From Anaeromyces robustus (lineage: Eukaryota > Neocallimastigomycota > Neocallimastigomycetes > Neocallimastigales > Neocallimastigaceae), in the NCBI GenBank assembly GCA_002104895.1, contig MCFG01000453.1, positions 1-49,975 of the forward strand: a DNA stretch of 49,975 nt, given 5' to 3'. Numbering within the stretch: the stretch's first letter is position 1; each line of letters starts with the position of its first letter. The notes beneath the pieces are model-generated. The model was not told the origin of the DNA, searched no databases, and was given only the letters and a program-made list of their open reading frames with translations. Positions 113 through 47,066 of the stretch are shown here, piece after piece. The position numbers and the translations under genes were made by a program.

Positions 113-827
113 TGTAACGGAACGGTAGTTCCAATATTACAATTGACACCAAAATCTGAAGTAAACACAAACAAAATAAAATTTAAAATAAAAGATACTT
201 ATTGCAATATCAGAACACCTTTCCTTTGTTAACCTGAAAGGTCGGTGTCGAGATATATATATTAGTAAGATTTAGTTTTAAGTTTTATTTTATTTTTATT
301 TAAAATATGTTTTATTAGAATTTAGTTTTATTAATTATTAAAAATTAATAATAACTAATCTTTGTAGTATTTCAAACTACTTATGAATTAATTATTACTA
401 ATATATATAAAGTTATAAAAGAATAAAAGCACAAAGAAAAATATTTTAACTAAAAGTTTTACACCTATTTATACTTTTTGCGGAAAAATAGTTTTAAAAA
501 TAAAAGTTCATAAAAAATAATAAAAATTGCTAGAAACTAAGATATTTTGTTATAAAATGAATCTCATAGAAAAATAAAGAAATATTATATAATTTTTTCT
601 TAAAGTTTCTAATTTTATTCCATGTAATTCTATAAAGAAATACAGAAATAAAATACAGAAACAAATACAGAATAAAATACAGAAATTTATAATAAATAAA
701 TTTAAAATAAAATTTTTATAAAATTTGGAACAAGGTGTGAGTCGAACCCAGAGTGTTCGCCCAGATGGTCATAGTTACTAACCACTAGACCATGGTTACT
801 ATTTTACTGATTGAGAGATTCGTTACA
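113..827 (-). repeat. 3' LTR of element A
   Basis: Direct copy of 11885-12599 at a constant offset of 11772 with no visible gaps. Ends are TGTAACGAAT (element 5' end, at 827) and CCGTTACA (at 113). A tRNA-like block lies near its 5' end (727-799). It abuts the polypurine tract at 828-838. Confidence 0.92.
727..799 (-). promoter_or_regulatory. tRNA-like sequence with A and B boxes in the LTR of element A (copy 1)
   Basis: On the minus strand the A-box-like TGGTCTAGTGGTTA (792-779) is followed after 30 nt by the B-box-like GGTTCGACTC (748-739). This is the spacing and sequence of a tRNA-Glu-type gene. The acceptor stem does not pair and the T stem is imperfect, so it is not a functional tRNA. 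It begins about 28 nt inside the LTR. A T4 run follows about 20 nt downstream. It could act as an internal RNA polymerase III promoter; that is inference. Confidence 0.6.
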
Positions 828-862
828 TGGTCCTCCTTCAGGATTCGGATACCAGACGAATC
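828..862 (-). other. Polypurine tract and hairpin at the 3' end of element A
   Basis: On the minus strand, AAGGAGGACCA (838-828) lies directly against the 3' LTR, as a plus-strand priming polypurine tract should. Just upstream is a hairpin with stem GATTCG/CGAATC (862-857 and 847-842) and a 9-nt loop. Element B has the same arrangement at 9657-9691. Confidence 0.75.
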
Positions 863-1160
863 TTAAAACTAGGCTAAACTATACTAAAAAAAAATTTTAA
901 CTAAATTTTTAAACTATACTAAAACTATACTATATAGGTGTAAAAATAATATAATTTGATATTAATAAAAATACATGAATATTAATTAAAATACATGAAT
1001 ATTAATAAAGTTTACATGATATTGATAATATTATGACTAAACTAAACTAAGCTAAGATTTTAAACTTAATAATAATAACAATAAGTTTGATATTAATAAA
1101 GAATAAAATATTGATAAAATAAATTTAATAGTTGAGATTCATTATTTAAGTTTTTCTTTT
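863..1160 (-). other. 3' untranslated part of element A
   Basis: AT-rich sequence between the Gag-protease stop and the 3' hairpin. It has short repeats of TAATATTAATAAA and ACTAAACTATAC type. No coding signal is seen in either strand. Confidence 0.6.
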
Positions 1161-2778
1161 TCATTTTGGTTTATTTTTAACAAAGTAACAGAGTAAGTTT
1201 TCAGGTGGTTTATCTTCATAAGGGAGATATGCATCAAGTTTAAATTCTTTAAATTTGTTGTTTTGCTTTCTTTTGTATTTAATTGATTTTGAATTGCTGA
1301 TTGCAAAGAATGAAGAGTTATTAATAATTTCTTTTGAATTTGCTAAGGAAAAATTTTGACATGTAGAATATTTATATATTTTTGAACGAAAATTTGACTT
1401 TAATTTATTATTATCGTTCACACTCTCCTTCGAAAAGATTGGATTAATGGGTTTTGAAAAATTATTATTTTGAATATGTTGATTTGAAGAATTAGATTTT
1501 AGGCAAGAATTAAGATTGCCAGATTTCAGATTATTGTTAAAAGAATCGTTACTAAGATTAACAGAGTTACAAGGAGAATTACTAGAGTTAACAGGATTAC
1601 AAGAATTTGTACTAAGATTAACAGAATTATTACAAGAATTTTTTCTAGGAAGTACACAAGAGTTAGAAACATAAGTTGGTTTATTATTATTTTTCAAAGG
1701 TTGTGAATTAATTGATTTTGTACGTTCTGAGTGGAAACAAGAAGTATTACAGAAAGATTTATTGCCAGAGTGATTATCAAGATTATTATTATTTTTAGAA
1801 TGAGGTTTACAAGATTTATCAGATTTTGTATTTTGAGAATTCGTCACGAATGAATTTGGGAGTATTAAACAATTTGAAAGACAGTAATTTGAATTGAAAG
1901 TTATTTCTTTAGTTGTAAAATTGATAGTGGGATTGTGAGTTACGAGCCAATCTATTCCAAGAATACCGCAATACGAAGGTAGATCCACAATATAGAATTC
2001 TGTTTTACAAAGGTGATTTTTATATTTCAACGAGATGGGAAACGTTTTACCAAAAATTGTTTGATTTCCGGCTACTCCAGAAACGGCAGGAAAAGTAGAA
2101 TCAGAATCAAAAGGAATATTGTTTTCTTTAGCAAAGTGTATATCCATAAGATTTAATTGAGAACCTGAATCGATGAGTAGTTTAGCATTGCAAGAAGAGT
2201 TTAAAGTTTGTAGATTGAATTCGGCAACTGGAGCATTCAAAGATGGATCATCAGAAAGTCTAGGTCTTGATTTTGGTTTGGATTCTGGATTAGAAATAAA
2301 AGCATTGCTGGAAGAGGGTTTGTTGTCATCTTCATTTACTTTATTCTTTAAAGGGCAGTTATTAACTTGATGGTTTTTTGATCCACAGTAGAAACAAAGA
2401 TGTTCTTTTCTTCTTCTTTCTTTTTCATCACGAGTTATTGTTTCATTAGATTTATTCGAAGCAAATTGAAAAGAGTTAGCATGACGACCAAAAGAATGAT
2501 TACTTGAATTATTCGATTTAAAGTATTGATTATGAGTAGAAAGTCTTAAATCTATACGAGAAGCTATGGTTTGAAGAGAGAATAAGGATTGTGGTCCAGG
2601 AAACATTTCTAAGATTCTAGTTGCAATATTGTCGTTTAATCCTGCGAGAAAAGCATCCATTTTAGCAGCTTCATTCCAAGAAGAGTCATCTGCGTATTTA
2701 TTGAACTCCAGGATGTAGCTTCTTACATCTCCAAGACGTCTCTGTTTAATGGTTCTGAGCTTTTGGTTTGCTATGAAG
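1161..2778 (-). CDS. Gag-protease of element A (Ty3/gypsy type)
   Basis: Minus-strand open frame, with the first internal ATG at 2660; the same frame continues upstream to the junction with element B at 2778. The upstream part (EFNKYADDSSWNEAAKMDAF and following) matches the Gag of element B closely. A zinc knuckle CFYCGSKNHQVNNC (C-x2-C-x4-H-x4-C) lies about 90 residues after the ATG. A retropepsin motif LLIDSGSQLNLMD lies about 70 residues further on, then the conserved GILGIDWL. The last 230 residues are a low-complexity Asn/Ser/Lys stretch ending in LLCYFVKNKPK. No polymerase domain follows, so the frame encodes particle protein and protease only. It is a fossil, interrupted by the nested element. 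Confidence 0.85.
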
Positions 2779-3255
2779 TGTAACGAATACTAGAAATTAT
2801 AGAGTTGGCTTACTCGTTAAGCTCTAGAACTCTGCTCAGTATTCCTGGGTTCAATACACAGGAATGCCTTTTGTTAAAATTTATATTTTTATTTTTTACT
2901 ATTTTATTATTTTATTTTTTTTTTTATTATTATTTTATTATATATTAATATATTATAAAGTGTATTAAATGATAATATTATTTTATTATAAAAAGGTTAA
3001 TAGACCAATTAGATTTAGAATATAATAACTCATGAAAAATGTAATTAAAATATTTTGAAATAATGTTTTTAAATATTCAAGAATTTTCTCATTTGAAAAT
3101 TCGAGTTTTTATTAACAAAGAAATAATAAAATAAATAAAATTATTTGATACTAACCTGTTGTTTGTTTGTGTCCAATAATTCTTGTTTATTTTCTAATAT
3201 TGAGGTGTTTTTAAGTTTATTAAGAATTATTATTGTTGGACTTCTGTTCTTTACA
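2779..3255 (+). repeat. 5' LTR of element B
   Basis: 477-bp copy of 9692-10165 with TG...CA ends. It begins with the same ten bases (TGTAACGAAT) as the LTR of element A. A tRNA-like block lies at 2798-2868. Confidence 0.93.
2798..2868 (+). promoter_or_regulatory. tRNA-like sequence with A and B boxes in the LTR of element B (copy 1)
   Basis: A-box-like TGGCTTACTCGTTA (2806-2819) and B-box-like GGTTCAATAC (2848-2857) lie 28 nt apart. The D-arm region is flanked by TAGAG/CTCTA. The T arm forms a good stem, TTCCTG/CAGGAA. A TTTT run, the usual polymerase III terminator, follows at once (GCCTTTTG). No paired acceptor stem is seen, so it is tRNA-derived rather than a tRNA gene. It starts about 20 nt inside the LTR. 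Confidence 0.6.
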
Positions 3256-3339
3256 ATAAAAACTCCTATAAAATTTTTTAAACACCTTAGTATCAAATAA
3301 TCAAATATAAAATTTTTAAAGACTACTTAAGTAAGTCAG

Positions 3340-3409
3340 TAAAAATTTATATTAAAGGAAAAAGGACGCTGAAAAAATAGAAAAGTCCGTATACTAATAT
3401 AAATTTTTA
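3340..3409 (+). repeat. Perfect 15-bp inverted repeat in the leader of element B
   Basis: Arms TAAAAATTTATATTA (3340-3354) and TAATATAAATTTTTA (3395-3409), with a second inner pairing GGAC/GTCC. It starts 85 nt after the 5' LTR, where packaging or priming structures usually lie. A role is inferred only from position. Confidence 0.7.
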
Positions 3410-3772
3410 CCTTTTGGCGCTTAATAGTAATAAAAAATTTTATATAATAATTTTTATAAAACAAAATTTTTTTTAATGACAATTTCAATTTCAGTTCAAT
3501 TTTAATTTCAAATCTCAATTTCAATTTCTATCACAATTCAATTAAAACTTCAATTTCAGTTCAATTTTAATTTCAAATCTCAATTTCAATTTCAATTTCA
3601 ATCACGATTCAATTAAAATTTCAATTTCAATTTAAAATCTCAATTTCAACTTCAATTATAATTCAATTAAAATTTCAATTTCAATTTAAAACCTCAATTT
3701 CAATTTCGACTACAATCCAATTAAAATTTCAATTACAATTTAAAATTTCAATTCAAACTTCAATTACAAATC

Positions 3773-3805
<33 letters not shown>

Positions 3806-3810
<5 letters not shown>

Positions 3811-3945
3811 ATTTCAATTTCAATTTCAATTTCAATTTCAATTTCAATTTCAATTTCAATTTCAATTTCAATTTCAATTTCAATTTCAATTTCAATTTCA
3901 ATTTCAATTTCAATTTCAATTTCAATTTCAATTTCAATTTCAATT
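3806..3945 (+). repeat. Hexanucleotide array (CAATTT)n
   Basis: About 23 uninterrupted copies of a CAATTT unit, preceded by a poly-A run and by about 300 bp of degenerate copies of the same unit. It lies within the transcribed leader of element B. Confidence 0.9.
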
Positions 3946-4006
3946 TATTCTTAATTTTAAATCCAATTTAAATTTAAATTTTGATTACAAATTCCAATTT
4001 AGTATT

Positions 4007-4041
<35 letters not shown>

Positions 4042-4804
4042 TTTTTCTTATCATCAAATTTAAATTCAATTGCAAATTGAAATTTCAATCTCAAAATTTC
4101 AAAATCAATTCTGTCAAAAAAAAAAAAATCTTTTTTTATTTAAAACAATACCAAACTAGAAGAGAATAAAACATTACAATTAAAGTAAACTTGACTAAAA
4201 TATACAAAAAAGGAAAAAAATATGAAAAAAAAAATAAATAAATACAAAGAAATTTAAATAAATCCAATAATAAAATTTAAATATATAAGTGAATGAATAA
4301 ATATTTTTTAAATAAATCAATTAATAAGTGAATAAAAATATAATATTTAAATAAAACACATAATAAAAAATAAACGAATAATTGTAATAAAACAAATAAA
4401 AAAAAAAATAATATAAAATATTTTTCTTTTTAATAAAAGAAAAATAAATATTTTTATATAAATTGTTATAAATTTTCTTTAAATCAGCTTCCTGTGACTT
4501 CCTACGCGAGGTAGCTTAATCAACTGCCGATACGTAATACTTTTGTTTTCTGGGATATTTGACAACTGAGGTAGCTCATATAATTTTTTTTCTTAAGGCT
4601 AATTAAGTTAGTCGTTAAAAAAAGAAATTAATAATATCCTACCTTTTATTAATTTTTAATTAATATTAACAGTCGAATATCTTAGCGTTTATATAACGGT
4701 TATAACAAAAGAGCTAAGGGTTCTATCACCTGAAGTTATTTAATAATTTATAAATAATTTGTTATAAAAATATTTAATTTTAATTATTAAAAAGAAAATA
4801 TTAT

Positions 4805-4860
<56 letters not shown>

Positions 4861-4959
4861 CTTTAAGAAAATTTATTGTTGATTTATATAAAAATTTAAT
4901 ATTGATAATTGAAATATCCTTTTCTTATTGATATTGAATTTAACAGTTTAAATCAGCAT

Positions 4960-5110
4960 AGACGAGCCTTACTAATCAATCAACAGAGGTATAGTAAGGG
5001 TGGTAATAAGATCCTGAAGCGCGTGACGGAACATAGATCGCGTGAATAGGGTGACGGAAAACGTTTACCATCGGATGAAAGACTCTTGATTAGTAGTCTA
5101 TTATATTTAA
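4960..5110 (+). other. Structured block in the leader of element B
   Basis: A G+C-rich island in AT-rich leader. Several complementary pairs are visible: CCTTACTA with TAGTAAGG, ACTAATCAA with TTGATTAGT (long range) and AGACT with AGTCT. CGCGTGA and GTGACGGAA each occur twice. This looks like a folded RNA domain, perhaps for packaging or dimerisation of the element's RNA; that role is inference. Confidence 0.5.
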
Positions 5111-5190
5111 ACTGGTCGGAAATTCAATTTCGATAATAACAATATTAAATTTATTTTTTTATAAACTTATATTACTTGAAAACTCAAAAG

Positions 5191-5223
<33 letters not shown>

Positions 5224-5295
5224 TTATTCTGAAGATATAAATTCGTTTTAATAAATTAAATTTCTCTTATTATAAATAAAGTAATAACTTTTAAT

Positions 5296-8200
5296 ATGGA
5301 CGAAGTAAACATCGACAATGCAATCCTGAAAGATGGATTTGCTGGGGATAGACGATACCTTAAGGGCTTTCTCGCTAAAATTAACTTGATATTCTTATTG
5401 TACCCAGATCGTTACCCAGATGACACGACCAAAGTAATTTATCTTATATCAAGACTATATGGTAACGCTATGAACTGGGCTGCTACCCTAATTGAAAGAT
5501 CAGACCCTTGTCTCAATGACTATCAAGCTTTTACTTCCAAATTAAAATCCTTTTATGGTGACAATGATGCTAGCTACGTCGCTAACCAAATGCTCAAGAG
5601 GATCAAACAAAAAAGTCTTGGAGGAATTAGAGGATACATATCCGAGTTCAACAAGTATGCCGATGAATCCAACTGGAATGAAGAGGCAAAAATGGATGCC
5701 TTCATTGATGGCCTACATCAACAAGTAGCTTTGAAAGTTTTAGAATTATTCCCTGGCCCAAGAGATTTAATCTCTCTTCAAACAATTGCTTCCAGAATCG
5801 ATTCAAGACTTAGTGCGAAAAGGACTTTCTTTGACAGTAATAATAATAATAACTCTACAAGAAAGAAAAATAACTATAGAAAAACTTATAATAAAGATAA
5901 TTCTCAAGCTAAATATCATGGACCCCTAAGTAATGAAGAGAAAGAAAGAAGAAAGAAAAATAATCTATGCTTATACTGTGGTTCTTCAAAACATAAATTA
6001 GACAGTTGCCCTAAGAGAACCAAAAAACCAACTGAGAAGACTTCTTTTATGTCTGTTCCTACTACTGTACCCACTCAGAATGAAAGAAGTAATAATCGTA
6101 GAAATGAACAAGCTACGTCTAATTTCAAATTATCATATGAACTGGATACCGAAGTATTGATTGATACTGGCTCTGCTCTCAATCTTATTGATGTCGACTA
6201 TTGTAATGATCATAACATTCCATATAGCTGTGATGAAGAACTTCCAAAGATTCTTGGAATAGGTGGTCGTCAAGCTTTATTCGGAATTACAAAACCACTT
6301 AATCTTCGTTACAAAGATCATTTGTGCAGAACTCAATTCTATGTCACAGATTTACCATATTATCATTGTATACTTGGTTTAGACTGGCTCAGAGAACACA
6401 ACCCCGACATTGACTTTACTAATAATAAAATCTCTTTTGTCTCCGAACATTGTCTTACATACTGCGTAACTTTACCGACTAATGTTCCAGAGTTTCCAGA
6501 AGAGAATTCTGCTTTTCCCCGAATAGAAAATAACTCTACGCAAAATAATGAAATAACTACTTTGCCCGTTTTTCTTGAAACTGAAAAAGAAACTTCGTGT
6601 AAATCCTCTTCTCAAGAATCAAAAACAAAAACCGAGAATCCAAAAGACAAGTCTTCAAAAGAAATATTAACTACAAAAGAATCTCTGATACAACTTGCAT
6701 TCTTGGTATCCCAGGAAATTCTGCCAAAAGAACTAATTGAATTTATTGATGTTTTTAGCGAAACATCTGCTGAAAAGCTTCCGCCACATCGTCCTTATGA
6801 CTGTCAAATAAACCTTATTGAAAACGCGAGACTCTTTTATGGTCCAATATATCCCTTAACTGAACTTGAATCCAGAATTCTTAAAGAGTACATTGAAGAA
6901 AATTTAAAAAAGGGCTTTATACGTAAATCCAAGTCTCCTGCTGGCGCTCCAGTTCTTTTTGTCCCTAAAAAGAATGGTGAACTACGTCTATGTCAAGATT
7001 ATAGAGAACTGAATAAAATTACTATCCGAGATTCGTATCCACTTCCATTAATTCAAGACATGTTAGAACATTTAGGAAAAGGCAAAATATTCTCTAAATT
7101 AGATCTACGCTCGGCCTATAATCTAGTTAGAATCAAAGAAGGTGACGAATATAAAACCGCCTTCACTTGTAAATACGGTCATTTCGAATACCTGGTTATG
7201 CCATTCGGTCTTAAAAACGCTCCCGCAGTTTTCCAACATTTCATTAATGATGTTTTTGAGGATATTATTGGTGACTTTGTCTATGCATACATAGACGATA
7301 TTATTATATTTTCTCTTGATAAAGAATCCCACATAATTCATGTTAAAGAAGCTCTTTCTCGTCTTCGTCATGCCGGTTTATATGCTAAACTGGAAAAATG
7401 CCAATTTTTCGTCTCGTCTATCGACTTCCTTGGTCATCGAATTTCTTCGGAAGGTTTATCTATGGATCCAAACAAAGTTTCTTCTGTTGTAAATTGGCCT
7501 GTTCCTACTAACGTTAAAGAACTACAATCTTTCCTTGGTTTAGCAAACTACTATAGAAGATTCATACTTGGTTTCGCTAAATTGTGTCAACCTCTACACC
7601 ATCTTCTTCGCAAAAATGTTACTTTTAATTGGTCTTCTGAAGCTCAATCCGCTTTCAATACACTTAAGTCTAAATTTTCCTCTTATCCTGTCCTTGTTCA
7701 TCCAAATAGAGAATTACCTTTCATAGTGGAAACTGATTCAAGTAATTTCGCTATTGGTGCGGTATTATCTCAGAAATCTCTTTCTGATAACCACATTCAT
7801 CCAGTAGCCTTTTACTCAAGATCCCTTTCTCCTACTGAACGTAATTATCCTATTTATGACAAGGAACTTCTTGCTATAATTTCTGCTCTTGAAAATTGGC
7901 GTCACTTTCTAAAAGGCGCTTCCGAACCTTTTGTTATTTACTCTGATCATCGTAATCTCTTATTCCAGAAAAAACCTGAGAAAATGACTCAAAGACTCGT
8001 TCGTTGGTCTCTATTCTTATCCGAATTTAACTTTAAAATTCTTTACCGTTCTGGTTCTTCTAATGGCAAGCCTGATGCACTCTCTCGTCGTCCAGACTAT
8101 ATTCCTTGTTCTAATACTTCTGACAACTCTCAATTTTCTGTTCTCCGTCCTGAAAATTTCTGTACTCTCATCTGTTCTAACACTTCTTTGTATAACGATA

Positions 8201-9606
8201 TTCTCTCTGACTACAAAAATGATTCATTTTACTCTGATATCTGCAATTACCTTGAGTCTAAAAAACCTCCCGTTCCTCACCAACATATTGATAAATTTTC
8301 TTTAAGCAACGGATTTCTCCTTTTTAATAATAAAATCTATACTCCTCCAAATTGCCGTTCTTCTGTTATTAAAATCTGCCATGATTCTCCTTCTGCTGGT
8401 CACTTCGGTATTAGAAAAACAACCTCTCTCATCTCTCGTGATTTTTGGTGGCCATATATTTCGTCTGATGTCAAAGATTATATTCGTTCTTGTGACATAT
8501 GTTGCCGTGCTAAATCTTCTCGTCATAAACCTTATGGTTTCCTGCATCCTTTAGAAATTAGTGATCGTCCCTGGTCTTCCATCTCTATGGATTTTATCAC
8601 CGACTTACCTAATTCTGAAGGTTATAATTGTATTCTTGTTGTCGTTGATCGTCTTACCAAAATGATTCACCTCTTTCCCTTTAATAATATTCCTTCTGCT
8701 TCTGAAACTGCTTCTGTTTTCCTTAACAATATTTTCAAACTTCACGGCTTTCCTTCTGAAATCATCTCTGATAGAGGTACTCAGTTCACCTCTAAATTCT
8801 GGAAATCTCTCTGTAAATCTTTCAATATTGACTTAAAATTCTCTTCACCTTATCATCACCAATCAAATGGGCAAACGGAGAGGGTGAACTCCGTTATAGA
8901 ACAATATCTAAGATGCTTCACCAACTATAAAGGAACAAATTGGAATCAATTTCTTTGCCTCGCTGAATTTAGTTACAACAATTCTTTACAAGACTCAACT
9001 GGCTTCTCACCATTTTATCTCAATTATGGATATCACCCAAGACACTCTCCAGTAATTCCAGATCAAACTTGTATTCCCAGAACCGAAGAAATGACAAAAG
9101 ACTTCGTAGACCTAAACAAGAAACTAAAAGAAAACCTGAAAAAGGCTATAGAAACACAGAAACTACAAGCAGATAAACGTAGATCCAAACCTCCTGAATT
9201 TAAAACTGGTGATAAAGTATGGTTGGACAGCTCACTAATAATCCACAAAGGCAATAAAAAATTTAAACCCAGAAAATTAGGACCCTACAAAATTTTAGAA
9301 AAAATTTCTGAAGTTTCTTATAAATTAGAATTACCAAAAACAATCAAGATACATCCAGTAGTTCATGTTTCTAGCTTAGAGCCATATTACGAAGATAGAT
9401 TTAATAGAAACCCTCCTGCTCCACCTCCCATAATAATTAACGACGAGCAAGAATATGAAGTAGAAGAAATACTCGACAAGAGAAAGTATTATGGAAAAAC
9501 TCAATATTTAATCAAATGGAAAGGCTACCCTATATCTGAAGCTTCTTGGGAACCTGTCGAAAATCTGAACTGTGATCAACTTCTTAAGGAATTTAATAAA
9601 AAATAA
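5296..9606 (+). CDS. Gag-Pol polyprotein of chromovirus element B
   Basis: One 1436-residue frame from ATG 5296. In order it encodes Gag (about 1-200), a zinc knuckle [14 protein letters not shown] (about 224-237) and a retropepsin with [12 protein letters not shown] (about 287). Next come a reverse transcriptase with [10 protein letters not shown] (about 662), RNase H with [17 protein letters not shown] (about 808) and integrase with an H-H-C-C zinc finger (about 1030-1080) and catalytic core from SMDFITDLP (about 1097). A C-terminal chromodomain begins [20 protein letters not shown] (about 1385-1436). Domain order RT-RNaseH-IN defines Ty3/gypsy; the chromodomain defines chromoviruses and is known in related elements to guide integration to modified histones. 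Base composition is clearly less AT-rich than the surroundings. It looks whole. Confidence 0.95.
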
Positions 9607-9691
9607 AAATTTTTATATTAGATAGTTTTAAATTTATTTTAATAAAATTTTATCTAGATTCGTCTGGTATCCGAATCCTAGAGGAGGACCA
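9607..9691 (+). other. Hairpin and polypurine tract at the 3' end of element B
   Basis: After the Gag-Pol stop, a GATTCG/CGAATC hairpin (9657-9662/9672-9677) is followed by the tract AGAGGAGGACCA (9680-9691), which abuts the 3' LTR. The hairpin sequence is the same as in element A. Confidence 0.78.
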
Positions 9692-10165
9692 TGTAACGAA
9701 TACTAGAAATTATAGAGTTGGCTTACTCGTTAAGCTCTAGAACTCTGCTCAGTATTCCTGGGTTCAATACACAGGAATGCCTTTTGTTAAAATTTATATT
9801 TTTATTTTTTACTATTTTATTATTTTATTTTTTTTATTATTATTTTATTATATATTAATATATTATAAAGTGTATTAAATGATAATATTATTTTATTATA
9901 AAAAGGTTAATAGACCAATTAGATTTAGAATATAATAACTCATGAAAAATGTAATTAAAATATTTTGAAATAATGTTTATAAATATTCAAGAATTTTCTC
10001 ATTTGAAAATTCGAGTTTTTATTAACAAAGAAATAATAAAATAAATAAAATTATTTGATACTAACCTGTTGTTTGTTTGTGTCCAATAATTCTTGTTTAT
10101 TTTCTAATATTGAGGTGTTTTTAAGTTTATTAAGAATTATTATTGTTGGACTTCTGTTCTTTACA
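9692..10165 (+). repeat. 3' LTR of element B (with second tRNA-like block)
   Basis: 474-bp copy of 2779-3255, with a slightly shorter T run. The tRNA-like block recurs at 9711-9781 with the same boxes and the following TTTT. Confidence 0.93.
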
Positions 10166-10199
10166 TTGTTAATAATCGTTTATTTTAAATTATGTTTTT

Positions 10200-10233
<34 letters not shown>

Positions 10234-11028
10234 TGGTTTTAGATTTTTCTGTTCTTTAAACGTTCATTTTTGAAAGCTTAAAGAAAGTCTCCAATCTTCT
10301 TTGTTCATTTTATTGTTTTTGTTATTTGTTTGATTAATTTATTATTGGTCTCGACTAGGAATTCAAATTGTTTATTAAGGTAAATTTAAATTTTAATTTC
10401 GCTTTTTATGCCTTACAACTCAAAAATAAACCGGCAAAAGCTACTAACTAGAGGTATATACTAGACCTCGAAATAAATATTAAAACTATATAATTAAAGT
10501 CGCTTCACCTTCACGACCAACCTCCAGCCTTCGGTGACTGAAGTTCCTTATTTGCCAGAGCTTACGAAGATATTGAACTTGAACGTCCGATATTGCAGTG
10601 CTTTTTATCACACAACAATTCCTTCCCCCAAGAAAGCGTGCTTTTCACACTACCCACTTTTATCAATACCTAAGTAACTAATTGACTATAGTTTCTTAAC
10701 CTACTAGAAACTAGTTACTTACGCCAAACACTCTGTATATGAGCTCTAAACGCTCCTAGTATATTTTACAAATAATTTACCTTAAAAATTTAATAATATT
10801 TATTACACAGAAGTTTACAAAGATGTTTTTTCTTTTAATAATTTTTTCTATTTCACACTGCTGTTCTTTCAGTTTATCAACTTACTCGAGCTGAATGTAG
10901 GACTTACGTCTGAGCCTACCAGCGAGGGCCAATGTGAAACTCGAAATTTAATTATAAAAAGAAAAAAGACAGTATAAAAATAAGGATCCTCAGAATGATT
11001 CTCCTTATTAAAAATTTTATTAAATTTA

Positions 11029-11065
<37 letters not shown>

Positions 11066-11884
11066 ACTAGAAAAAATTTTTTTGAAAAATAATTTAATTT
11101 ATCTATTCTATAATTTATTCATTCACTTAATTTTTTATAATAATTTATTTAATTTATTAATATTCATTCACTTAATTTAATTTATTTAATTTTTTTAATT
11201 TAATTTTATTAATTTTCCGAAAATATCACTGGCAAGGTAGTACAAAATCTTTTTCAAATGCTATGGGGTACACTATTTTTATCTTTGGGTAGTACAAGGA
11301 AAATTTTTCAAAATGTTACACAAGGAAAATTTTTTAACTATTCTAGGGTGGTACAAAATTTCCAATAACTAAGGTTTCTAAGTAATTCAAAGGCAATCCA
11401 AGGTAAAGTAGCTAAGACTAAGGAGAGAAACTAGGCGGTAGTTCTAAGAACTTGGTTAAACTAAGGACGGGTGGAATCTGGGTGCTTTATTTTTTTACTT
11501 TATCAAGAAAAATTTTTATTCGAGAAAGATACTTGATAGGATGGATACTAGAATTATTCAAGAAAAGTAGACAAAGGGTAAACAAGAAGTAGACAAGACT
11601 AAGACAAGACTAAAACTAAGAATTATACAAGGTAGATAACTAGGAATCAAAGACTAAGGTAGAAGTATCCAAAAACTAAGGCTAAAAGATTATTGCTAGA
11701 AAAGGTAGTATCCAGAAACTAGGAAAAGTAGTATTCTAAGATTAGACTAAAAGAAGTAGTATCCAAAGGTAGTTCTAAAAGGCGGTAGAATCCAATAAAA
11801 GGTAGAAACTAAAAATTGGTAGCAGATTCCAAAATTTTCGACACTAAGGTTCCAGGCGGTGTTTCTTTTGTTGGGTGCTTTTAT
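10166..11884 (-). other. Leader region of element A
   Basis: Sequence between element B and the 5' LTR of A. It has T runs (A runs on the element strand) at about 10201-10230 and 11035-11064. A G+C-richer block at about 10430-10990 has nested inverted repeats, including AAGTAAC/GTTACTT enclosing TAGTTTCT/AGAAACTA, and GAGGT/ACCTC. From about 11390 to 11880 it has imperfect repeats of a GTAGTATCCAAA and ACTAAGG type. No coding frame is seen. The layout parallels the leader of element B. Confidence 0.65.
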
Positions 11885-12599
11885 TGTAACGGATCGGTAG
11901 TTCCAATATTACAATTGACACCAAAATCTGAAGTAAACACAAACAAAATAAAATTTAAAATAAAAGATACTTATTGCAATATCAGAACACCTTTCCTTTG
12001 TTAACCTGAAAGGTCGGTGTCGAGATATATATATTAGTAAGATTTAGTTTTAAGTTTTATTTTATTTTTATTTAAAATATGTTTTATTAGAATTTAGTTT
12101 TATTAATTATTAAAAATTAATAATAACTAATCTTTGTAGTATTTCAAACTACTTATGAATTAATTATTACTAATATATATAAAGTTATAAAAGAATAAAA
12201 GCACAAAGAAAAATATTTTAACTAAAAGTTTTACACCTATTTATACTTTTTGCGGAAAAATAGTTTTAAAAATAAAAGTTCATAAAAAATAATAAAAATT
12301 GCTAGAAACTAAGATATTTTGTTATAAAATGAATCTCATAGAAAAATAAAGAAATATTATATAATTTTTTCTTAAAGTTTCTAATTTTATTCCATGTAAT
12401 TCTATAAAGAAATACAGAAATAAAATACAGAAACAAATACAGAATAAAATACAGAAATTTATAATAAATAAATTTAAAATAAAATTTTTATAAAATTTGG
12501 AACAAGGTGTGAGTCGAACCCAGAGTGTTCGCCCAGATGGTCATAGTTACTAACCACTAGACCATGGTTACTATTTTACTGATTGAGAGATTCGTTACA
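11885..12599 (-). repeat. 5' LTR of element A
   Basis: 715-bp partner of 113-827. Its tRNA-like block is at 12499-12571 on the minus strand, identical to copy 1. It is followed by the target duplication AAAAT at 12600-12604. Confidence 0.92.
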
Positions 12600-13419
12600 A
12601 AAATGTAAAGATGGATATTTTATACATCAAAGAAAATATCTAGATGAAATATTCAGAAAATTTGATATTGAAAAATACAATAGTGTTTCTAATACAATGC
12701 CTATAGAAAACACAGAATTTAGGAATAGGAAATTCAATAAGAAAAAATATCAACAAGCAGTAGGAAGCTTACTATATTTAGCATTATGCACTAGACCAGA
12801 TATCTTATTTTCGGTAAGTAAAGCATCCAGATATTCAAAAGAACCTAATTACGAAAACTGGTATAACTTAATGAAAATATTTAGATATTTAAAAAGATAT
12901 CCAGATTACGGAATTATGTTTAAAAAAAACAATAATATGGATTTAAAAATATACGTTGACGCAGATTTAGGTAGTGATAAAGAAACAAGAAGATCTACCA
13001 CCGGTTTTGTTATGACCATAAACTCTGCACCAACAAGTTGGTTTTCAAAACTTCAACACACTGTAGCTGTATCTACTATGGAAAGCGAATATTATGGTAT
13101 TCACGAATGTGCTAAACATGCATTATGGTATAAAAATTTATTCGAAGAATTAAATATTAAAATGAATAAAATGATAATAAATAGTGATAATAAATCAGCT
13201 ATTTACAATTGTTTAAACAAAACAATAAATCCAAAATCTAAACACATGCAATTAAGATATCATAGTATCAAAGAACATGTAGATAACGGTGACATTGATC
13301 TAAAGTATATAAAATCAGAAAATAACATTTCAGATGGTTTTACGAAATATTTGAATTCTAGCTTAATGACTAAATTCAGAAATAATCTTTTATTAAGCAT
13401 AAACGATATTAAACTTTAG
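12600..13419 (+). CDS. Ty1/copia Pol, C-terminal part (reverse transcriptase end and RNase H)
   Basis: Open frame from the A-element junction to TAG 13417-13419. It shows the usual copia features: KKYQQAVGSLLYLALCTRPD (connection), IYVDADLGSDKETRRSTTGF (RNase H core with the ADxG...T/S-GF pattern), AVSTMESEYYGIHECAKHAL, then IKYIKSEN-like and DGFTK terminal motifs. RNase H as the last domain is diagnostic of Ty1/copia. It continues the element whose left part lies at 1-112. Fossil, interrupted by nested elements. Confidence 0.9.
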
Positions 13420-46088: not shown

Positions 46089-47066
46089 ATGAAATCATTA
46101 TCTGTTTTACCAATAGTTGCCGCTATTTTAGCTACAAAAGTTTCTGCTGATTGTTTTTCAGAGAGACTTGGCTATCCATGTTGTGTATATACTACTAAAG
46201 TTGAATACGTTGATGCCGATGGTGACTGGGGTGTTGAAAACGGTAATTGGTGTGGAATGCCAGACGTAGAAGAACCACCATCTTATGAACCTGAACCATG
46301 GCAACAAACTGGAGGCTTCGATATGGGAGGTTTCGATATGGGTCAATGGGGAGGTCAAGGTGGTTTTGACATGGGCCAATGGGGCGGCCAAGGTGGCTTC
46401 GACATGGGTCAATGGGGCGGCCAAGGTGGCTTCGACATGGGTCAATGGGGCGGCCAAGGCGGTTTCGACATGGGAGGTCAAGGTGGCTTCGACATGGGTC
46501 AATGGGGCGGCCAAGGTGGCTTCGATATGGGCCAAGGTGGTTTCGACATGGGTCAATGGGGCGGCCAAGGTGGCTTCGATATGGGCCAAGGTGGTTTCGA
46601 CATGGGTCAATGGGGCGGCCAAGGCGGTTTCGACATGGGAGGTCAAGGTGGCTTCGACATGGGTCAATGGGGCGGCCAAGGTGGCTTCGATATGGGCCAA
46701 GGTGGTTTCGACATGGGTCAATGGGGCGGCCAAGGCGGTTTCGACATGGGAGGTCAAGGTGGCTTCGACATGGGTCAATGGGGCGGCCAAGGTGGCTTCG
46801 ATATGGGCCAAGGTGGTTTCGACATGGGTCAATGGGGCGGCCAAGGTGGCTTTGATATGGGAGGCCAAGGTGGTTTCGATATGGGCCAATGGGGAGGTCA
46901 AGGAGGCTTCGACATGGGTCAATGGGGAGGCCAAGGTGGCTTCGATATGGGTCAATGGGGAGGCCAAGGTGGCTTCGATATGGGAGGTTTCGGTGGATTT
47001 AATAATTATGGTGATGTTGAAAAGAAAGAAGATGATAAGAAAGAAGAAGACAAAAAAGAAGAATAA
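46089..47066 (+). CDS. Secreted dockerin protein with GGFDMG-type repeats
   Basis: Single exon, 325 residues. A signal peptide ([20 protein letters not shown]) leads straight into a fungal dockerin, [11 protein letters not shown]...[16 protein letters not shown] (about 22-57). This is the Cys-rich module that attaches proteins to anaerobic-fungal cellulosomes. After an acidic/Pro linker comes a domain of about 24 GGFDM units in three forms: [18 protein letters not shown] and GGFDMGGQ. The last two alternate with the first in a higher-order 37-residue unit. The C terminus is a charged Lys/Glu/Asp tail ([15 protein letters not shown]). No catalytic domain is present. I infer a structural, adhesive or spacer part of the cellulosome. 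The gene is far richer in G+C than its surroundings, and the repeat leaves other frames open too. Confidence 0.9.
46307..46990 (+). repeat. Coding tandem repeat array of the dockerin protein
   Basis: Repeats of 33, 21 and 24 bp, almost identical in sequence and arranged in a 111-bp higher-order unit (11+7+11+8 residues) present about three times in the middle. The uniformity points to recent unequal exchange or gene conversion. Confidence 0.88.

What the first reader, a model, noticed from the sequence alone, without database searches (positions are those of the whole stretch)
2779..2872. tRNA-derived A/B boxes and T4 terminator at the start of LTR B
The first 95 nt of the LTR hold an A-box-like and a B-box-like sequence at tRNA spacing, a well-paired T arm and an immediate TTTT. 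This looks like a complete internal RNA polymerase III unit inside an LTR, repeated at 9711-9781. LTRs are normally polymerase II promoters, so a tRNA-like polymerase III cassette at the U3 edge is unusual. It could yield small RNAs, attract TFIIIC-linked integration or regulate the element.
Basis: partly seen in the sequence, partly recalled or inferred. Interest (0 to 1): 0.75.

Follow-up and report, generated by a model that had tools for sequence, protein, structure and literature searches.

The report
tRNA-gene-like promoter boxes in retrotransposon LTR
The first hundred bases of the long terminal repeats of several related jumping genes in a gut-fungus-like genome keep the two control boxes normally found inside transfer-RNA genes, at the right distance from each other, which suggests that RNA polymerase III or its assembly factor is recruited to these repeats.

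Summary
LTR B (2779-3255, 9692-10165) has an A-box-like sequence (2806), a B box (2848) 42 nt on, and TTTT (2869). It is not a tRNA gene (ARAGORN, Rfam: none; acceptor stem 2/7). The TTTT says little: 78% of 41-nt stretches of these LTRs hold one.

The best evidence lies in relatives. A second Ty3-like element of the window (minus strand, 12599-113) has perfect boxes (16/16, spacing 44) at the same place. So do 3' LTRs beside RT genes 76-81% identical to B's: all six located carry boxes (five scored, 14-16/16, spacing 43-44). A short, ORF-less LTR-like element met by the box scan (L027, at least 40 copies of its head) has 16/16 at LTR position 36, though its head is otherwise little like the others. 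Shuffled heads reach these scores in 0-2 of 4000 trials. Outside the boxes six of seven heads show no tRNA similarity. Three more distant families gave no boxes; their LTR starts are uncertain.

The boxes lie upstream of the 11-nt self-primer marking the inferred Pol II start, so a Pol III RNA would be about 80-90 nt, not the genomic RNA. Helenus TRIMs (Kojima 2024) have tRNA-like LTRs but are non-autonomous. Transcription is untested.

The parts
2779..3255 (+). 5' LTR of element B, TG...CA, 477 bp; U3 about 2779-3102
   Evidence: direct repeat with 9692-10165; ends, 473/474 identical plus one 3-nt gap
2806..2816 (+). A-box-like TGGCTTACTCG (6/8)
2848..2858 (+). B box GGTTCAATACA (8/8), 42 nt from the A box
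2869..2872 (+). TTTT, possible Pol III terminator (uninformative by itself)
3103..3113 (+). GAGTTTTTATT, inferred start of R and self-primer
   Evidence: exact reverse complement of 3255-3265; this 11-mer occurs in 13 of 5000 shuffled LTRs
3255..3265 (+). primer-binding site AATAAAAACTC (last LTR base plus 10)
5296..9606 (+). single gag-pol ORF, 1436 aa
9692..10165 (+). 3' LTR of element B, preceded by purine tract AGAGGAGGACCA
9719..9729 (+). A-box-like, 3' LTR
9761..9771 (+). B box, 3' LTR
11885..12599 (-). 5' LTR of element A (715 bp)
12554..12564 (-). A box TGGTCTAGTGG (8/8), element A 5' LTR
12510..12520 (-). B box GGTTCGACTCA (8/8), spacing 44
12194..12204 (-). GTGCTTTTATT, self-primer and inferred R start of element A; TATAAAT begins 41 nt upstream
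113..827 (-). 3' LTR of element A
782..792 (-). A box, element A 3' LTR
738..748 (-). B box, element A 3' LTR

Best explanation
The head of the LTR (about the first 95-105 nt of U3) is a conserved tRNA-type (type 2) Pol III promoter module: an A box and a B box 42-44 nt apart, carried by several Ty3/Gypsy families, some with an intact gag-pol frame, and by a short ORF-less LTR element of the same genome. Shown: the boxes, their spacing, their like position in the LTR, and their place upstream of the self-primer that marks the inferred Pol II start (in A, B and L027). Inferred: TFIIIC binds the boxes and Pol III makes a short RNA of about 80-90 nt that ends in the T-rich stretch behind the B box, while a separate promoter makes the self-primed genomic RNA. 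The module would then be an accessory element that keeps the LTR accessible, insulates it or regulates it, through bound TFIIIC or through the small RNA, and not the source of the genomic RNA.
For: Scores of 16/16 in A, L108, L109, L110 and 14/16 in B, L105, L107 at spacing 42-44 (11 tRNA sequences of this genome: 15-16 at 43-45); 0-2 of 4000 dinucleotide shuffles reach the score. A scan of 394,174 bases (both strands, overlapping loci) found 4 places of 14 or more that were not sorted as known heads: two are tRNA genes (L015, L025), one (L017, 14) is unexplained, and one (L027, 16/16) sits at position 36 of a repeat that begins TGTAACGG: the 110 nt from there on recur at 40 scored places of 61 candidates, five pairs of them 1085-1089 nt apart, while the 110 nt before occur once; it has an 11-nt self-primer and no ORF over 54 aa in the 912 nt held. 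Box columns are more often invariant than other head columns (15 of 25 against 11 of 47, p 0.0025, rows not independent). No tRNA similarity outside the boxes in 6 of 7 heads.
Against: No RNA or factor-binding data. B's A box is degenerate (6/8) although the family looks young (45 of 50 heads identical). T runs are expected by chance. In L105 and L107 a second B-box word stands only 28 nt from the A box and scores as well (14) or better (15) than the one at 43. Both boxes lie in predicted hairpins; 5 of 7 heads have z of -2.5 or less, so an RNA element may be what is selected. The heads of A, B and L105-L110 share ancestry (about three clades). Three more distant RT families (L111 64%, L112 59%, L113 43%) showed no boxes, with LTR starts uncertain.
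Confidence: 0.6

Rival explanations
1. TFIIIC-only site: the boxes bind TFIIIC as a boundary, tethering or chromatin element without Pol III transcription (like the extra-TFIIIC sites of yeasts; recalled).
For: The B box is 8/8 in B although the A box is degenerate; terminators cannot be told from chance.
Against: The A box is retained as well, at tRNA spacing, which a site for TFIIIC alone may not need.
Confidence: 0.18
2. A structured RNA or DNA element of the retrotransposon (packaging, plus-strand priming next to the polypurine tract, integrase end) whose hairpins merely contain box-like words.
For: z of -2.5 to -3.9 in 5 of 7 heads; a two-hairpin consensus, 4 of 18 pairs with changes on both sides; position next to the polypurine tract.
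Against: Heads A and L110 fold hardly better than shuffles (z -0.16, -1.16); the covariation term of the consensus fold is unfavourable (+1.41); B's second hairpin differs from the others, yet GGTTCRA stays; the tRNA spacing and its recurrence in the L027 element are unexplained.
Confidence: 0.13
3. Relic of a tRNA or SINE captured once in an ancestral LTR, now without function.
For: Head B aligns collinearly with tRNA-Cys, 0 of 300 shuffles; outside the boxes 8 of 2000.
Against: A relic should decay evenly; in 6 of 7 heads only the boxes are tRNA-like and box columns change least.
Confidence: 0.06
4. Chance match in a locally GC-richer patch.
For: LTR B alone scores only 14/16, as does one place in gag (5754) and one in a flank (L017).
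Against: 16/16 in A, L108, L109, L110 and L027 with 0 of 4000 shuffles each, at LTR position 36.
Confidence: 0.03

Closest known systems
Helenus (TRIMp3), Kojima 2024, PMC10886601
   [quoted passage not shown] occurs in fungi; 5-bp target duplications. The short L027 element resembles it in lacking ORFs
   Different: Helenus are 311-1263 bp, non-autonomous, and the fungal ones are tied to Copia and primed by tRNA. Here families with gag-pol carry the boxes, priming is from the LTR itself, and the boxes lie upstream of a separate inferred Pol II start. The paper reasons that autonomous partners must use a Pol II promoter and hardly share LTR stretches with TRIMp3
Cassandra and Ajax (5S-derived TRIMs; from Kojima 2024 and search listings)
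   Same: Pol III promoter inside an LTR
   Different: 5S rRNA-derived and non-autonomous; Rfam reports no 5S here
Tf1/Tj1 self-primed Ty3/Gypsy elements of fission yeasts (PMC4600332, abstract and passages)
   Same: PBS complementary to an LTR-internal stretch; Tj1 is linked to Pol III genes by where it integrates
   Different: No A/B boxes in the LTR in the passages seen; our B insertions are not next to tRNA genes
Foamy-virus Pol III microRNA units in U3 (recalled, not read)
   Same: Pol III units upstream of the Pol II start in the LTR of an autonomous retroelement
   Different: Animal retroviruses; no sequence relation tested

Membership tests
type 2 (tRNA-type) Pol III promoter | A and B box at tRNA spacing | tested here: met
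   14-16 of 16 at spacing 42-44 in 7 of 7 heads, 16 at 43 in L027; for B the A box is only 6/8
type 2 (tRNA-type) Pol III promoter | T4 terminator behind the B box | tested here: inconclusive
   present within 35 nt of the B-box start in 7 of 7, but 78% of 41-nt LTR windows hold one
type 2 (tRNA-type) Pol III promoter | transcription by Pol III | not testable with these tools
   no RNA data
tRNA gene | cloverleaf recognised by tRNA models | tested here: not met
   ARAGORN 0 in the window; no Rfam tRNA up to E=10 around the heads of B, A and five relatives; acceptor 2/7 in B
Helenus / TRIMp3 | tRNA-like boxes in the LTR | tested here: met
Helenus / TRIMp3 | short, non-autonomous, no coding region | tested here: not met
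   element B has a 1436-aa gag-pol ORF; the L027 element would meet it in part
Cassandra / Ajax | 5S rRNA-derived sequence in the LTR | tested here: not met
   no Rfam 5S match
self-primed Ty3/Gypsy chromovirus (Tf1-like priming) | PBS complementary to an LTR-internal stretch | tested here: met
   11 nt in B and, with other letters, in A and L027; not established for L105-L110, whose 5' LTR ends were not fetched
self-primed Ty3/Gypsy chromovirus (Tf1-like priming) | gag, RT, integrase and chromodomain in one ORF | tested here: met
   Pfam accessions of P0001, identical to the window protein (meanings of the accessions recalled)
self-primed Ty3/Gypsy chromovirus (Tf1-like priming) | 5-bp target duplication | tested here: met
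   5 of 9 solo LTRs and 3 of 5 full pairs of family B; not at the window's copy of B; element A has ATTTT

The most novel reading that the evidence does not exclude
Ty3/Gypsy elements of an anaerobic-gut-fungus-like genome have two-polymerase LTRs: a selected Pol III unit at the start of U3 makes a short RNA in addition to the Pol II genomic RNA, was kept while RT sequences diverged to about 76-81% identity, and is shared with a short ORF-less, self-primed element that has little else in common with them in the LTR head.
Probability: 0.37. Interest if true: 0.78.

Novelty: new variant of a known kind. Interest (0 to 1): 0.63.

Why it matters
In the literature found (an open-access library only) Pol III promoters inside the LTRs of retrotransposons are described for short non-autonomous elements, where they are thought to make the template RNA; retroviral Pol III microRNA units are recalled but were not read. 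Conserved boxes upstream of the inferred Pol II start in elements that code for gag-pol would mean another role, and give a testable system for how TFIIIC or a small RNA serves a retrotransposon. The LTRs also scatter possible TFIIIC sites over the genome: the purine-tract/LTR junction alone occurs at 184 places against 7 in the reversed control.

Tried and rejected
Full tRNA gene: rejected. ARAGORN with its threshold relaxed gave five calls in the same 600 nt, so it was not used. Conservation within family B: uninformative. TTTT as evidence: dropped. Plainly scored local alignment of B with other heads picked mostly AT-rich tails; composition-aware scoring was used instead, where B matches L108 and L110 (0 of 1000 shuffles each), L109 (1), L105 (7), A (22) and L107 (50). 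Whole heads against tRNAs, boxes included: shuffles as good in 0 (B, L109), 1 (A), 2 (L107), 3 (L105), 4 (L110) and 17 (L108) of 300. Integration near tRNA genes: not seen. Viral contigs: no relative and no junction motif. A contig binned to a Methanosphaera MAG (L114) encodes a 69% relative, but no LTR head was found in it. Distant families: L111, L112, L113 gave no boxes.

Full report
What is there. The window lies in an unnamed 70.2-Mb, 769-contig genome. Among 36 protein matches to element B (residues 1-500), P0028 bears a label read as Orpinomyces (Orpsp1, 46% identity; the reading of the label is recalled), so an anaerobic gut fungus is likely but not proved. Element B runs from 2779 to 10165: two nearly identical LTRs (473/474 plus a 3-nt gap), one 1436-aa gag-pol ORF, a purine tract AGAGGAGGACCA before the 3' LTR, and a PBS whose 11 nt are the reverse complement of 3103-3113 inside the LTR. 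That is the Tf1/Tj1 kind of self-priming (PMC4600332, abstract and passages seen) and puts the start of the genomic RNA near 3103.

The feature. A-box-like TGGCTTACTCG at 2806, B box GGTTCAATACA at 2848, TTTT at 2869-2872. With a recalled consensus of 8+8 positions the head scores 14/16 at spacing 42; 2 of 4000 dinucleotide shuffles reach that. Five places of the window, both strands, score 14 or more: the two LTR B heads, one place in gag (5754), and two 16/16 places at 12564 and 792 on the minus strand; the reversed control reaches 13.

The second element. Those two places lie in the LTRs of element A (minus strand, 5' LTR 12599-11885, 3' LTR 827-113; 716 of 717 aligned positions alike; target duplication ATTTT). 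A's LTR starts with the same TGTAACGAA, its 3' LTR follows the same kind of purine tract, the boxes are 44 apart, TATAAAT stands at LTR position 355 and an 11-nt self-primer at 396, with letters different from B's.

Other families. From the RT matches I fetched nine further places. In six (L105-L110; RT 76-81% identical to B's) the 3' LTR was located and shows the boxes. Five were scored: 16/16 at spacing 44 in L108-L110, 14/16 at spacing 43 in L105 and L107; L106 is nearly the same as L105 and was left out of the statistics. In L105 and L107 a pair at spacing 28 scores as well or better (14 and 15). The open frames around these six RTs are 1388-1508 codons long. In the other three places (L111, RT 64%; L112, 59%; L113, 43%) no boxes were found; the LTR start is uncertain in L111 and not located in L112 and L113. 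The purine-tract/LTR junction motif, up to 3 mismatches, has 184 matches in the genome against 7 for the reversed pattern. Heads like B's: 49 exact and 4 with 1-2 mismatches in a 29-nt core; like A's: 40 of 368 candidates scored, all 99-100%; like L105's: 40 of 54 scored, 96-100%.

A short element found by its boxes. A scan of the fetched loci (394,174 bases, both strands, overlapping) gave four places of 14 or more that were not sorted as known heads. Two are tRNA genes (L015 Trp, L025 Ser), one is unexplained (L017, 14), and one (L027, 16/16) begins 35 nt behind TGTAACGG. The 110 nt from TGTAACGG on recur at 40 scored places of 61 candidates (99-100%), five pairs of them 1085-1089 nt apart; the 110 nt before occur once. 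So TGTAACGG is the edge of a repeat. In the 912 nt held, the element has a likely LTR of 572 nt that ends in TTACA, followed by a PBS that is the 11-nt reverse complement of LTR position 404, a GAGGAGGA tract, and no ORF over 54 aa. Its second LTR was not read. Apart from the boxes its head is little like the others (23-923 of 1000 mononucleotide shuffles score as well). Its exact purine-tract junction was not found in the genome (25 matches with 1-3 mismatches, all but one printed and none exact). This looks like a short non-autonomous, self-primed LTR element with the same boxes at the same place.

tRNA or promoter boxes? ARAGORN and Rfam see no tRNA in the heads tested. Cloverleaf stems are incomplete: acceptor 2/7 in A, B, L105, L107 and 4-6/7 in L108-L110, 1/7 in L027. 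With the boxes left out, six of seven heads match the 11 distinct tRNA sequences at hand (five isotypes) no better than shuffles; B alone does, to tRNA-Cys (8 of 2000). In the alignment of seven heads 15 of 25 box columns and 11 of 47 other columns behind the LTR tip are invariant (p 0.0025; 0.02 with one row per clade). So the conserved thing is the pair of boxes at tRNA spacing. The seven heads share ancestry, in about three clades.

Structure. Heads also fold: z of -2.5 to -3.9 in five of seven, not in A (-0.16) and L110 (-1.16). RNAalifold gives two hairpins, one with the A box and one with the B box; four of 18 pairs show changes on both sides, but the covariation term is unfavourable. 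A role of RNA structure is a live rival.

Copies of family B. 50 distinct LTR copies, 15 distinct sequences; 45 share the first 93 nt; 12 of 93 head columns and 30 of 384 others show substitutions. This neither supports nor refutes selection on the boxes. 5-bp duplications flank 5 of 9 solo LTRs and 3 of 5 full pairs.

Mechanism proposed. The boxes would bind TFIIIC, and Pol III would make a short RNA that ends in the T-rich stretch behind the B box, some 230 nt (B) or 290 nt (A) before the inferred Pol II start; it cannot be the genomic RNA. Whether the RNA, the bound factor or both matter is open. Shown: boxes, spacing, position, sharing among families. Inferred: binding, transcription, effect. 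TATAAATA-like words lie between the boxes and the start region in A, L105 and L107-L110; B has only TATAAA further upstream.

Known kinds. Kojima 2024 (PMC10886601; abstract, sections 3.2, 3.5 and 4, and search passages seen) describes Helenus, short non-autonomous LTR elements with tRNA-like LTRs, in fungi tied to Copia, and reasons that autonomous partners must use Pol II. Here several families with long gag-pol frames keep the boxes next to a separate inferred Pol II start. Whether any of them is active was not tested. The searches that showed me no report of such LTRs in autonomous retrotransposons were made, of which only listings were seen, apart from PMC10886601, PMC4600332 and passages of PMC2864245. 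Foamy-virus Pol III microRNAs in U3 are recalled, not read.

Noticed in passing
window 113-12604, minus strand: Element A (target duplication ATTTT) shows a gag-protease-like ORF (1161-2660, by eye) but no RT ORF of its own, and stands at a copia-like ORF (12583-13419, by eye). Many A-type heads elsewhere lie about 4.4-4.6 kb apart in pairs, which suggests a group of elements without RT.
   Followed up: partly
L027 1-912, minus strand (G000 C273): Short ORF-less LTR-like element, starts about 1086 nt apart, with perfect A/B boxes and an 11-nt self-primer; at least 40 copies of its head.
   Followed up: partly
window 2774-2778 and 10166-10170: Element B has no target duplication here (TGAAG / TTGTT), and the right flank does not seem to continue A's gag: deletion, recombination or misassembly.
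   Followed up: partly
window 9658-9680 and L105-L110: GATTCGTCTGGTATCCGAATCC, able to form a hairpin, stands just before the purine tract in B, A and L105-L110.
   Followed up: no
window about 46438-46840: Tandem units of about 54-57 nt with TGGGTCAATGG words (background hits).
   Followed up: no
L114 (SUTP01000073.1): A contig in a Methanosphaera stadtmanae MAG encodes a 69% relative of element B's RT, perhaps a fungal contig binned wrongly.
   Followed up: partly
G000 C219 and C378: tRNA-Arg(TCT) genes in many near-identical copies, a few hundred to a few thousand bases apart.
   Followed up: no
L005 1606-1684 (C571): An extra piece of LTR end close behind a B-family 3' LTR.
   Followed up: no
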